A stretch of 45,017 nt of DNA from Pseudomonadota bacterium. Lineage in GTDB: Bacteria > Pseudomonadota > Gammaproteobacteria > GRL18. Of this stretch, positions 1 through 3,929 are shown in pieces. Both the position numbers and the translations under genes were made by a program. The DNA is taken from NCBI GenBank assembly GCA_015222495.1, contig JADFVK010000154.1, positions 1 through 45,017 of the forward strand. The letters run 5' to 3'. Every line of letters begins with the position of its first letter. The stretch's first letter is position 1. The notes beneath the pieces are model-generated. The model worked only from the letters and a program-made list of their open reading frames with translations. It made no database searches and had not been told where the DNA came from.

Positions 1-2
1 GT

Positions 3-122
3 AACCTTGGAGATGGAGTTCGCTTGAATGATGAAATTCTGGCTGGTGCATTATGGGCTGTTGAAGGCTTAATTGGACAGGCTAAAATTCTAACCAGTGG
101 AAAAGGTAAAAGTATTGATTAA
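3..122 (+). CDS. C-terminal end of an unidentified protein (truncated by window start)
   Basis: Open frame from base 3 to TAA at 120-122 (NLGDGVRLNDEILAGALWAVEGLIGQAKILTSGKGKSID*), followed by a terminator hairpin. Confidence 0.5.
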   Translation, partial: NLGDGVRLNDEILAGALWAVEGLIGQAKILTSGKGKSID

Positions 123-172
123 ATTTCATGCTGAATTAATTCAAATGGAGGCCGGTGAAAAGTAACAATCAG

Positions 173-204
173 AGGTGGGCTTGAATCTGGGCTCACCTTT
201 TTAT
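173..204 (+). terminator. Rho-independent terminator
   Basis: AGGTGGGC (173-180) pairs with GCTCACCT (191-198, one G-U), followed by a T-run. Confidence 0.7.
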
Positions 205-265: not shown

Positions 266-295
266 TTAGACATATCAATTCAGAAAATGTAGAAT
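266..295 (+). promoter_or_regulatory. Candidate sigma-70 promoter for leader RNA
   Basis: TTAGAC (266-271), 18 nt spacer, TAGAAT (290-295); predicted start about 302, at the first base pair of the leader stem. Confidence 0.4.
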
Positions 296-302
296 AACTA
301 CT

Positions 303-431
303 CCCGAGGTGTGTTACCTTATGGTCAACCATCCATTTTATGGGTGCAACTAATATTGAGGAGATTTTTCTCCTAGCCTTTTGGCTTGCTCGGTAACGGG
401 CGTTAACCTGACTAAAATTAGACACCTTGGG
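303..431 (+). ncRNA. Candidate structured ncRNA associated with the SLATT-RT cassette
   Basis: Closing stem CCCGAGGTGT (303-312)/ACACCTTGGG (422-431), 10 bp with one G-U; adjoining stem GTTACC (313-318)/GGTAAC (392-397); internal hairpins 330-336/340-346, 359-364/369-374 and 375-378/383-386 with T-rich loops. Confidence 0.55.
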
Positions 432-452: not shown

Positions 453-1034
453 ATGGAACTATCAGATAATATTTGGTGGACAAGAAAAGCTAGAATACAA
501 GCAGAAAAACGACTCTTATCTAGTGACTTTCAGGCTCAAACACTATTGTTATGGTATTCTTTCTGCTCTGTTTCTGCTGCTATTTATTACTTAAAGTTTA
601 ACACACAAAGTGAATATGCTGGTATTTCTTGGGTTGTATTTTCTGTATTAATTTTATGTATATCTGGCTTCATTAATGGCCTTAGTTATAAAGAAAGAGC
701 TGCACTAGTAAAGGATAGTTACGAGACCCTACACGCTCTTTACCACAGGGCATGTAAAAATAAAGAAGATACGAATGAAATTGCAAAAGAATATGAACAA
801 ATTTTGAGTGTTTGTGAAAACCATTCTGACATTGATCATTATTTATCAATTTTAAACACTAACCTGACTAGTAATGATCCCAATGATGTAAATAAAAAAC
901 CAACATTTTATATTTGGGCTTTTATCAGCTTTTACTTTATAAAAAGGTGGTTAATTCTCAGTGGGCTTTACCTGCTACCAGTAATTATATTTTTTATAAT
1001 GGAGTTCGCCAGTGACTGTAAGGGAACAATTTGA
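453..1034 (+). CDS. SLATT-domain (SLATT_5-like) 2TM membrane protein, putative effector
   Basis: N-terminus ENIWWTRKARIQAEKRLL-type motif (here DNIWWTRKARIQAEKRLL), two closely spaced TM helices then amphipathic helix and C-terminal hydrophobic segment; overlaps downstream RT. Confidence 0.75.
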   Translation: MELSDNIWWTRKARIQAEKRLLSSDFQAQTLLLWYSFCSVSAAIYYLKFNTQSEYAGISWVVFSVLILCISGFINGLSYKERAALVKDSYETLHALYHRACKNKEDTNEIAKEYEQILSVCENHSDIDHYLSILNTNLTSNDPNDVNKKPTFYIWAFISFYFIKRWLILSGLYLLPVIIFFIMEFASDCKGTI

Positions 1035-2343
1035 ACATCATTTTTCGGAAGAAAATCTTAAAGCAATTTATCAATCACATATTATTCTTTCAAACGCAAC
1101 AGGAATAGACAATTTAAGTCAAAAAGCATTTTGGCCTATTATTGATGAGCAAGTTTCTATCATATCAAATAAGGTGCTAGCAGGAAGTTACAAATTTACA
1201 AAATACAAATTAAAACTCATAAGCAAAGGTAGAAATAAATTTCCCAGAGAGATATCAATCCCTACAATAAGAGATCGAATTGCATTAAGAGCGCTCTGTA
1301 ATTTTTTATTTGAACGTTATAAAGATACAATTAATTTTGAACTACCCCAAAATATGATAAGGAATGCAAAAACTAAAATTCAGTCAGGTATGCATAATGG
1401 ATTTATAAAACTTGATGTATCTAATTTTTATCCCACAATAAGACATCAAGAACTATTAAAGCGACTACGTCGAAAAATAAGAAATCCAGAAATAATAGAA
1501 TTTATTGAACTGGCAATCAAAACACCGACAGTATTAAAATCATTGCCTTCTGACAAAAATACAGCAATTGGAATTCCTCAAGGCCTATCTATTTCAAATA
1601 TCCTTGCGACAATATATTTACTTAATATTGACAAACAACTGTCAAGTAATTCAAAAATTGCTTATTACCGCTACGTTGATGATGTATTTATTTTATGTGA
1701 CTATGGATTAATATTAGATACCTCATCAGAGGTTATAAAAAAATTTAAGAAGCTTGGACTAAAAATACATGATCCTATTGAGAGTCCTGAGAAGTCAATA
1801 TTAGGAAAAATCGGTGAAACATTTGACTACCTTGGATATAAATTTGAGGGTGATCTCGTAAGTCCAAGAGATGGAGCCATAGAAAAACTAAAAGAATCAT
1901 TAGTTTCGATTTTTACTAGTTATAAACACTCCCTAACAATGGATGTAGGATTTCTTTTATGGAGACTAAATTTAAGAATTACTGGCTGCGTCTTTCAAAA
2001 TAAAAGTAAAGGTTGGGCTTTCTTTTTTTCAGAAATAAATAATGAAACAATACTCCATAATCTTGATAGGCATGTTAAGAGGTTAGCCGAAAGATTTGAT
2101 GTGAGCATTACACCAAAAAGATTTGTTAGAACATATTATGAAATAAAACATTCAAAATATGAAACCAACTATATTCCAAATTTTGACACATACTCGTTAG
2201 ATCAAATGAAAGATATGCTAAATACTTATTTTGGTCTGAATGTAGGCTTTTTAAAAGATGAAGAAATAGAATATGAATTTAAGAAACGGATTGACAAACA
2301 GGTTAAAGACTTGCTTACAGATGTACAGGATTTTGGATACTAA
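1012..2343 (+). CDS. Reverse transcriptase (RVT_1), probable defence-associated type
   Basis: Motifs IKLDVSNFYPTI, GIPQGLSISNILA, YYRYVDDVFIL; GTG start with GGAG at 1001-1004; 23-nt overlap with SLATT gene; no maturase or HNH domain. Confidence 0.85.
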   Translation: MTVREQFEHHFSEENLKAIYQSHIILSNATGIDNLSQKAFWPIIDEQVSIISNKVLAGSYKFTKYKLKLISKGRNKFPREISIPTIRDRIALRALCNFLFERYKDTINFELPQNMIRNAKTKIQSGMHNGFIKLDVSNFYPTIRHQELLKRLRRKIRNPEIIEFIELAIKTPTVLKSLPSDKNTAIGIPQGLSISNILATIYLLNIDKQLSSNSKIAYYRYVDDVFILCDYGLILDTSSEVIKKFKKLGLKIHDPIESPEKSILGKIGETFDYLGYKFEGDLVSPRDGAIEKLKESLVSIFTSYKHSLTMDVGFLLWRLNLRITGCVFQNKSKGWAFFFSEINNETILHNLDRHVKRLAERFDVSITPKRFVRTYYEIKHSKYETNYIPNFDTYSLDQMKDMLNTYFGLNVGFLKDEEIEYEFKKRIDKQVKDLLTDVQDFGY

Positions 2344-2520: not shown

Positions 2521-2871
2521 TTAGTCTTCATAATTTGCATCAACCAGATCACCAACTACAATATTAGATAATTTATCCTGAGAAGATAACCACTTTTCAA
2601 TTGCCTGGCGATCTTCTTCAGTAGTTGAAACACGAAAATCAATAGCTGTTATAAAAGCATCAAACTCTTTCCCGGTATATCCACCACCAAAGCAAAGATT
2701 TCTGGATTCAACAAAGTCTATGAAATCATCAAAGTAGGAATCAAAGCCTGATTCATCTCCCAGGGTGCATTGGCCAGAGACATCAAAGCCGAATACTGCA
2801 TACTCACCGATGAATAACTTTTTTTGAACTCGTTTGTTTTTATTTTTTAATGAAGGTTTTGTCATGGTCAT
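2521..2871 (-). CDS. YggL-like (DUF469) protein
   Basis: NKRVQKKLFIGEYAVFGFDVSG...DDFIDFVESRNLCFGGG...AIEKWL resembles the YggL 50S-binding family. Confidence 0.65.
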   Translation of the reverse strand: MTMTKPSLKNKNKRVQKKLFIGEYAVFGFDVSGQCTLGDESGFDSYFDDFIDFVESRNLCFGGGYTGKEFDAFITAIDFRVSTTEEDRQAIEKWLSSQDKLSNIVVGDLVDANYED

Positions 2872-3680
2872 ATTAGTCCTTTTGTATTTTTTTCACTTAT
2901 AGTCTGCTCTACTTCAAGATATTGCAAATATTTTTCTATTAAATTTAATGCTGCTTTTCTTGCCCTTTCAAGCTCATTCTTTTCAGCTTTACGAAGTTTT
3001 CCAGCGTGTTGTCCCCTATGCCTTCCTTCCTCTATAGGTTCATGATTTGAGAGTCGAGCAATTGCATCCCATTCACTCTTTGTTGTTCCCAACTGATTAA
3101 TAGCATCTTTCTCTTTCCCAAATCGACCTAAAAATGCATCCAGAATTTCAAATAAATGAATTAGTTCATTCCCCGGATCTTTTACCGCCATTTGATAACT
3201 TTTAAGTATATGACCGAGTGTGCTATCAATATCTCGATATTTATCTAATTTTTCAGCAAAACACTTTTGTTTGTCCAACCTATCATGCTTTGTGCTTGAA
3301 ACTATTTTACCATCCTTATCTTGAGTTATAACATCAGCAGACATACTGAGTATAGAGATGCAAGAAAACTCCGCTTCTGCAAATACATTTTTACCCCCAT
3401 CTTTTCTTAAATCACTTCGACTTGGCTTACTTAATGTAAAATCCTTATGTGACATAACCTGAACAGTTAAAAATCTATTTTCTATTAAATTTGTTAGATT
3501 TTTTTTAATATCTGGGTTTTCTGAGTGGAATAATGGTTCAATCTTTGCGGTCACAATACCATTAGAAATTGATAGGTCAAAACCTTTACCATTAATTGGA
3601 ATGAATTCTTCAAAATAGTTTTCTGGAGAGTATTTCCATTCTAATTGAACCTCTATAACTTCACACATTTTGCTTACCAT
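2868..3680 (-). CDS. Hypothetical protein, 270 aa
   Basis: Long ORF overlapping the YggL-like gene by 4 nt; no family recognised. Confidence 0.6.
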   Translation of the reverse strand: MVSKMCEVIEVQLEWKYSPENYFEEFIPINGKGFDLSISNGIVTAKIEPLFHSENPDIKKNLTNLIENRFLTVQVMSHKDFTLSKPSRSDLRKDGGKNVFAEAEFSCISILSMSADVITQDKDGKIVSSTKHDRLDKQKCFAEKLDKYRDIDSTLGHILKSYQMAVKDPGNELIHLFEILDAFLGRFGKEKDAINQLGTTKSEWDAIARLSNHEPIEEGRHRGQHAGKLRKAEKNELERARKAALNLIEKYLQYLEVEQTISEKNTKGLI

Positions 3681-3718: not shown

Positions 3719-3738
3719 TAATCAAATAGCAGTTTATT
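3719..3738. repeat. Fourth copy of the 20-bp repeat
   Basis: TAATCAAATAGCAGTTTATT, 3 mismatches to the copy at 2431-2450. Confidence 0.55.
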
Positions 3739-3842: not shown

Positions 3843-3929
3843 TGGTGCCCAGAAGAGAACTCGAATCTCCACGCCCTTGCGAGCACTAGCACCTGAAGCT
3901 AGCGTGTCTACCAATTCCACCACCTGGGC
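3843..3929 (-). tRNA. tRNA-Leu (anticodon CAG)
   Basis: Reverse complement GCCCAGGTGGTGGAATTGGTAGACACGCTAGCTTCAGGTGCTAG...GTTCTCTTCTGGGCACCA; long variable arm; encoded CCA. Confidence 0.95.

What the first reader, a model, noticed from the sequence alone, without database searches (positions are those of the whole stretch)
303..431. Closed multi-hairpin leader RNA immediately upstream of the SLATT-RT operon
CCCGAGGTGT (303-312) pairs with ACACCTTGGG (422-431) over 10 bp (one G-U). GTTACC (313-318) then stacks directly on it, pairing with GGTAAC (392-397). Inside are three hairpins with short T-rich loops: CATCCAT-TTT-ATGGGTG, AGGAGA-TTTT-TCTCCT and AGCC-TTTT-GGCT. A candidate -10 (TAGAAT, 290-295) would start transcription at about 302, the outer edge of the stem. 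Such repeated U-loops recall RT-recognition hairpins of retron msr RNAs.
Basis: seen in the sequence. Interest (0 to 1): 0.8.

Follow-up and report, generated by a model that had tools for sequence, protein, structure and literature searches.

The report
DRT10 template RNA of antiviral reverse transcriptase
The folded RNA upstream of the two genes is real: it is the template RNA of a recently described bacterial antiphage system (DRT10), whose reverse transcriptase copies a short stretch of the RNA over and over, much as telomerase does; this locus is a new member of that known system.

Summary
Bases 303-431 fold far better than shuffled sequence (z = -6.0), and the same RNA lies upstream of related SLATT-RT genes in 31 of 37 loci searched, with both-sided compensatory changes in 32 of 36 pairs. 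One detail is wrong: GTTACC (313-318) does not pair with GGTAAC (392-397).

The retron-msr interpretation is not supported. The RT is UG17 and its partner SLATT_5, which together define DRT10 (Tang et al. 2025 preprint, PMC12632851). A covariance model built here links this RNA to the E. coli Eco3-type DRT10 RNA, and a script applied alike to all loci returns that system's published cDNA repeat, GAATCATTG. The RT ends in Tyr443, the published position of the priming residue.

Most likely mechanism: the RNA templates protein-primed tandem-repeat cDNA from the loop 405-421, just 3' of hairpin 388-401 and a near-invariant GUU. Predicted product: (AGTCAGGTT)n, with a 5-nt repeat as alternative. 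Transcription probably starts near 302.

Verdict: new member of a known kind. RNA, cDNA and defence were not measured here.

The parts
171..200 (+). Terminator-like hairpin that may insulate the operon from the upstream gene
   Evidence: 13-pair stem followed by T run; 2 such sites in the region against 1.1 in shuffles, so weak on its own
267..295 (+). Sigma-70-like promoter TAGACA - 17 nt - TAGAAT; predicted start of the RNA near 302
   Evidence: 10 of 12 consensus matches, best in 122-2600; total number of sites not above chance
303..431 (+). DRT10 template ncRNA, modelled extent (P1 to P1)
   Evidence: z = -6.0; covariance models; covariation
303..312 (+). P1, 5' strand (pairs with 422-431)
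   Evidence: 9 of 10 pairs with changes on both sides, 93% of cells paired
313..329 (+). Hairpin SL1 (GTTACC-TTAT-GGTCAAC); present in the Eco1-like group, largely absent from the Eco3-like RNAs
330..346 (+). Hairpin SL2 (CATCCAT-TTT-ATGGGTG)
   Evidence: 97.5% of cells paired
349..354 (+). Conserved single-stranded motif ACUAAU (CUAAU, or CUGAUAA in Eco3-like RNAs)
   Evidence: alignment of 28 RNAs
359..374 (+). Hairpin SL3 (AGGAGA-TTTT-TCTCCT)
   Evidence: 98.1% of cells paired
375..386 (+). Hairpin SL4 (AGCC-TTTT-GGCT)
   Evidence: 92.9% of cells paired
388..401 (+). Hairpin SL5 (GCUCG-GUAA-CGGGC), position of the published template-boundary stem-loop
   Evidence: 98.5% of cells paired, all 5 pairs covary; for the role in the homologue
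402..404 (+). GUU directly 5' of the template, in 26 of 28 RNAs
405..421 (+). Template loop AACCUGACUAAAAUUAG; A = 405-406, B = 407-413, A' = 414-415 predicted; rival A = 406-407, A' = 411-412
   Evidence: family p < 2e-4 over 23 loops; the window alone is not significant
422..431 (+). P1, 3' strand
453..1034 (+). SLATT_5 membrane protein gene, 193 aa
   Evidence: Pfam SLATT_5 2.5e-28, PADLOC RTasSLATT 1.6e-59
1012..2343 (+). UG17 (DRT10) reverse transcriptase, 443 aa, YVDD 221-224, C-terminal Tyr443 (predicted primer)
   Evidence: PADLOC RT_UG17 1e-164; C-terminal residue Tyr or Ser in homologues; AlphaFold2 pLDDT 89.6

Best explanation
The 303-431 RNA is the template RNA of a DRT10 (UG17) antiphage system made of ncRNA, SLATT protein and RT. 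Transcribed from a promoter at about 267-295, the RNA folds into P1 closing five hairpins and a single-stranded loop (405-421), and binds the RT. The RT starts DNA synthesis on its own C-terminal residue (Tyr443), copies the loop up to the boundary set by SL5 and GUU, lets go, re-anneals the new 3' end to a short repeat downstream (A') and copies again, making tandem-repeat single-stranded cDNA, here most likely (AGTCAGGTT)n. The repeat cDNA is thought to control the SLATT membrane protein during phage infection. Shown here: structure, conservation, family identity and the positions of template loop and C-terminal Tyr. Inferred from the characterised homologues: RT binding, priming, repeat synthesis, defence. 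The SLATT link is a hypothesis of the original authors.
For: UG17 RT 1e-164 and SLATT_5. RNA in the published place, upstream of SLATT. Models built here find the RNA upstream of SLATT in independent loci, including E. coli Eco3-type loci L059/L060. 32 of 36 pairs covary; model-free consensus agrees. A-B-A' enriched at the start of the loop, and the same script returns the published Eco3 repeat GAATCATTG for L060. C-terminal Tyr443 where Tyr444 / Ser456 prime in the characterised homologues.
Against: The window's own A-A' match is only 2 nt and not significant alone (p = 0.63), with a rival 5-nt register. In the predicted fold part of the template loop (409-414) is mostly paired with 322-327. 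No RNA, cDNA or defence data exist for this locus. The published work is a preprint.
Confidence: 0.9

Rival explanations
1. A retron msr/msd: the RNA is primed internally from a branching G and copied into msDNA.
For: RT next to a multi-hairpin RNA with flanking complementary ends.
Against: The RT is UG17, no retron family among the 25 best; NAxxH absent by inspection. Variable hairpin loops and a variable single-stranded template loop rather than a long msd stem.
Confidence: 0.02
2. A DRT9-like system in which the RNA templates poly-dA homopolymer.
For: DRT9 RNAs have a similar overall fold, and DRT9 sometimes carries SLATT (PMC12632851, PMC12483538).
Against: Drt9 scores 1.3e-16 against 1e-164 for UG17. 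The loop 405-421 has no U tract, while DRT9 templates are universally poly-U.
Confidence: 0.02
3. A cis-acting leader (riboswitch-like or protein-binding) that regulates SLATT-RT expression and is not a template.
For: It ends 21 nt before the SLATT start codon on the same strand, with no terminator-like site between them, so it may be co-transcribed.
Against: No Rfam family reaches its gathering score. The homologous RNA binds the RT, is the template, and is required for defence. The A-B-A' pattern is not expected of a regulator. An additional cis role is not excluded.
Confidence: 0.03
4. Same system, but repeats of 5 nt: A = AC 406-407, A' = AC 411-412 (or AAC against GAC with a terminal G-T wobble), giving (CAGGT)n or (AGGTT)n.
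For: In the aligned homologues L015 and L009 the AC at this place is A'.
Against: It needs the template to start one base after GUU, or a wobble at the primer's 3' end, where the published work finds pairing most stringent.
Confidence: 0.3

Closest known systems
DRT10 (UG17) of E. coli, Eco1-like subgroup (L009 by inference: RT of 444 aa ending in Tyr444)
   Same: Gene order ncRNA-SLATT-RT, P1 with hairpins and SL5, GUU then template loop, C-terminal Tyr; RT 54% identical
   Different: Different template sequence, different P1/SL sequences, other host and neighbourhood (tRNA-Leu and YggL gene, no integrase next to it in the window)
Eco3DRT10 (456-aa RT, Ser456; L059/L060)
   Same: Homologous RNA by covariance model (E about 1e-6 to 1e-5), same template position
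   Different: Lacks SL1, has CUGAUAA instead of CUAAU, 4-nt A (CAAT), Ser primer; RT 38% identical
DRT9 (UG28)
   Same: RT-bound structured RNA template, protein priming, fold of RT similar
   Different: Poly-U template and poly-dA product; separate RT family
Telomerase RNA / TERT
   Same: Works alike according to PMC12632851: short template, alignment segment, 5' boundary element, repeat addition
   Different: Protein-primed, compact, antiphage; the kinship with TERT is the authors' claim and was not tested here
Retron msr/msd
   Same: Structured RNA next to an RT gene
   Different: Different RT family and motifs; copied differently

Membership tests
DRT10 (UG17) | UG17 reverse transcriptase with YVDD active site | tested here: met
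   PADLOC RT_UG17 1e-164, YVDD 221-224
DRT10 (UG17) | Adjacent SLATT gene | tested here: met
   SLATT_5 at 453-1034, overlapping the RT start
DRT10 (UG17) | Structured RNA of about 137 nt upstream of SLATT, homologous to characterised ones | tested here: met
   129-nt RNA; model R2, trained without Eco3-type loci, finds them at E about 1e-6 to 1e-5; covariation
DRT10 (UG17) | A-B-A' template pattern just 3' of SL5 | tested here: inconclusive
   Met at family level (p < 2e-4); in the window A is 2 nt and not significant alone, as also for Eco1 and Eco2 (2 nt)
DRT10 (UG17) | C-terminal priming Ser or Tyr | tested here: met
   Last residue Tyr443, aligned with the last Tyr/Ser of homologues; priming itself not tested
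DRT10 (UG17) | Tandem-repeat, protein-linked ssDNA and phage defence | not testable with these tools
   Needs expression and sequencing
Retron | Retron RT with NAxxH motif | tested here: not met
   Motif absent; RT is UG17
Retron | msDNA with 2'-5' branch from a conserved G | not testable with these tools
   Needs experiment
DRT9 (UG28) | UG28 (Drt9) RT | tested here: not met
   Drt9 1.3e-16 against UG17 1e-164
DRT9 (UG28) | Poly-uridine template tract | tested here: not met
   Loop 405-421 AACCTGACTAAAATTAG has no U tract

The most novel reading that the evidence does not exclude
Besides SL5, DRT10 RNAs carry two near-invariant single-stranded elements, CUAAU/CUGAUAA (ACUAAU at 349-354 here) and GUU just 3' of SL5 (402-404), which are partly complementary (AAU with GUU). 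They may pair, or bind the RT together, to fix the 5' edge of the template exactly, so that template sequence and repeat length are free to change. In this locus a 2-nt realignment onto a run of A (414-417) would give repeats of mixed length (9 to 11 nt).
Probability: 0.25. Interest if true: 0.45.

Novelty: new member of a known kind. Interest (0 to 1): 0.33.

Why it matters
It adds a naturally varied DRT10 locus with a predicted cDNA sequence that can be tested directly, and gives a simple rule for where DRT10 templates begin (right after GUU). The wider subject, telomerase-like repeat synthesis in bacterial immunity and how repeat DNA acts on SLATT proteins, is open, but this locus alone does not settle it.

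Tried and rejected
Retron and DRT9 readings: rejected on RT family, motifs and template. Rfam: only matches below gathering scores, taken as chance. Phage records: no relative of the RT. Viral-contig scan with a single protein found only a locus already held, and a scan with the close subgroup found no new ones. Own genus, family and class with model R1: no other copy in 57 genomes, so the system is patchy. A first alignment of 11 RNAs misplaced P1 in three divergent rows, so a 4-sequence seed was used. Distance from Tyr443 to the active site could not be measured: no coordinates were available and residues 441-443 have pLDDT below 50. Supplementary files of the preprint could not be read, so the published Eco1/Eco2 sequences were not compared directly; equating L009 with Eco1 rests on the 444-aa length and the C-terminal Tyr.

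Full report
OBSERVATION. The quoted sequences are at the quoted places. The 303-431 RNA folds at -50.8 kcal/mol against -30.4 +/- 3.4 for dinucleotide shuffles (z = -6.0, none of 200 as good). The proposed second stem (313-318 with 392-397) is not in the minimum-energy fold and has no support in homologues. Bases 313-329 form their own hairpin (SL1) and 388-401 form another (SL5). The count of promoter-like sites in the region is about the shuffled mean, so the promoter rests on position and score only.

NEIGHBOURS. The downstream genes are SLATT_5 (453-1034; Pfam 2.5e-28, PADLOC RTasSLATT 1.6e-59) and an RT (1012-2343; PADLOC RT_UG17 1e-164, next best Drt3a 4.4e-37). UG17 RTs with SLATT partners were named DRT10 in a 2025 preprint (PMC12632851). 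[quoted passage not shown]

HOMOLOGUES. Loci with related RTs (about 31-63% identical) came from species genomes, plasmids, E. coli chromosomes and viral contigs. In most of them a SLATT-sized ORF ends next to or inside the RT start. A covariance model built from four RNAs (window, L002, L015, L016) found an RNA upstream of SLATT in eleven further distinct loci at 25-80 bits; the next best match anywhere was 12.8 bits. A second model from fifteen RNAs reached E. coli loci with 456-aa RTs (L059, L060) and similar loci on viral contigs, none of them used in training, at E = 1e-8 to 1e-5. In all, 31 of 37 distinct loci searched have the RNA; L012, L013, L050, L051 and L061 gave no match and L058 only a weak, distant one. 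Over 27 distinct RNAs, 94.9% of cells form standard pairs (68.5% after shuffling, 44-54% when slid), and 32 of 36 pairs show changes on both sides. An unconstrained MAFFT alignment of eight RNAs folded by RNAalifold gives P1, SL1, SL2, SL5 and the core of SL3 independently. The shuffles ignore relatedness and the model alignment leans towards its structure, but the slide control and the model-free consensus point the same way.

TEMPLATE. Directly after SL5, 26 of 28 RNAs have GUU, followed by a loop of variable sequence. Searching each loop for a prefix that recurs downstream gives a total A length of 69 over 23 distinct loops against 45.2 +/- 4.9 in shuffles (none of 5000 as high). The signal is strongest when the loop is taken to start at the end of GUU or one to two bases earlier (z 4.0 to 5.0) and fades at once further 3'. 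The loops are related, so the p value is optimistic. As a check, the same script gives CAAT, period 9, repeat GAATCATTG for L060, exactly the repeat published for Eco3DRT10. For L009, whose RT has 444 residues ending in Tyr as published for Eco1DRT10, it gives a 2-nt A (AC) and an extra AC inside B, matching the published remarks on a 2-nt A and a cryptic re-annealing site. For the window the loop is AACCUGACUAAAAUUAG: A = AA (405-406), A' = AA (414-415), period 9, predicted cDNA (AGTCAGGTT)n. A rival register uses AC at 406-407 and 411-412 (period 5). The window's own repeat is not significant alone (p = 0.63). The run of A at 414-417 predicts uneven repeat lengths.

RT. The last residue is Tyr443; close homologues end in D-x-GY and most others in Ser, the published primer position. 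A few ORFs end otherwise, some of them apparently truncated or from a divergent branch. AlphaFold2 gives a confident RT fold (mean pLDDT 89.6, pTM 0.85) with a long helix 416-439 and a flexible last three residues. The nearest solved folds are group II intron-type RTs, then DRT9 and DRT2.

MECHANISM. Shown here: a conserved, covarying RNA in a fixed place in a UG17-SLATT operon, with template loop and C-terminal Tyr at the published positions. Inferred from the characterised homologues: RT binding, priming on Tyr443, repeat addition by dissociation and re-annealing, and phage defence. That the repeat DNA controls SLATT is the original authors' proposal and is untested.

NOVELTY. This is a new member of DRT10, in the Tyr-ending, Eco1-like subgroup, which carries an extra hairpin (SL1) that the Eco3-like RNAs largely lack. 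The near-invariant GUU and CUAAU/CUGAUAA elements are not discussed in the main text of the preprint; its supplement could not be read, so I do not claim them as new. A 19-nt element repeated three times downstream of the RT is recorded separately.

Noticed in passing
2432-2450, 2481-2499, 3720-3738 (+): A 19-nt element AGTCAAATAGGCGTTTATT occurs three times (0, 2, 3 mismatches; 0.03 expected in the window) and nowhere else in the 2.28-Mb draft genome. The copies bracket two minus-strand genes between the DRT10 operon and tRNA-Leu; they may be recombination sites.
   Followed up: partly
2521-2871 (-) and 2868-3680 (-): A YggL-family 50S ribosome-binding protein gene (Pfam PF04320, 1.8e-24) and an overlapping 270-aa gene without a significant Pfam or PADLOC family, between the RT and tRNA-Leu(CAG) at 3843-3929.
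   Followed up: partly
349-354 and 402-404: Two near-invariant single-stranded elements of the RNA, CUAAU/CUGAUAA and GUU, are partly complementary; too invariant for covariation to test pairing.
   Followed up: partly
L011 3594-4034 (Pseudoalteromonas sp. CuT4-3 plasmid): A fragment of a DRT10-like RT (53% identical over 141 residues) annotated as hypothetical, with no SLATT gene beside it; apparently a decayed system.
   Followed up: no
L061 2913-5158 (E. coli 1008S13): A UG17 RT (1.4e-139) that precedes its SLATT gene instead of following it and has a different C-terminus (DEGEVYPK); neither RNA model finds the RNA there, so its template RNA may be of another type.
   Followed up: no
1-121 (+): The window begins at a contig start inside the 3' end of an unidentified ORF (39 codons seen), so the upstream context of the operon is not visible.
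   Followed up: no
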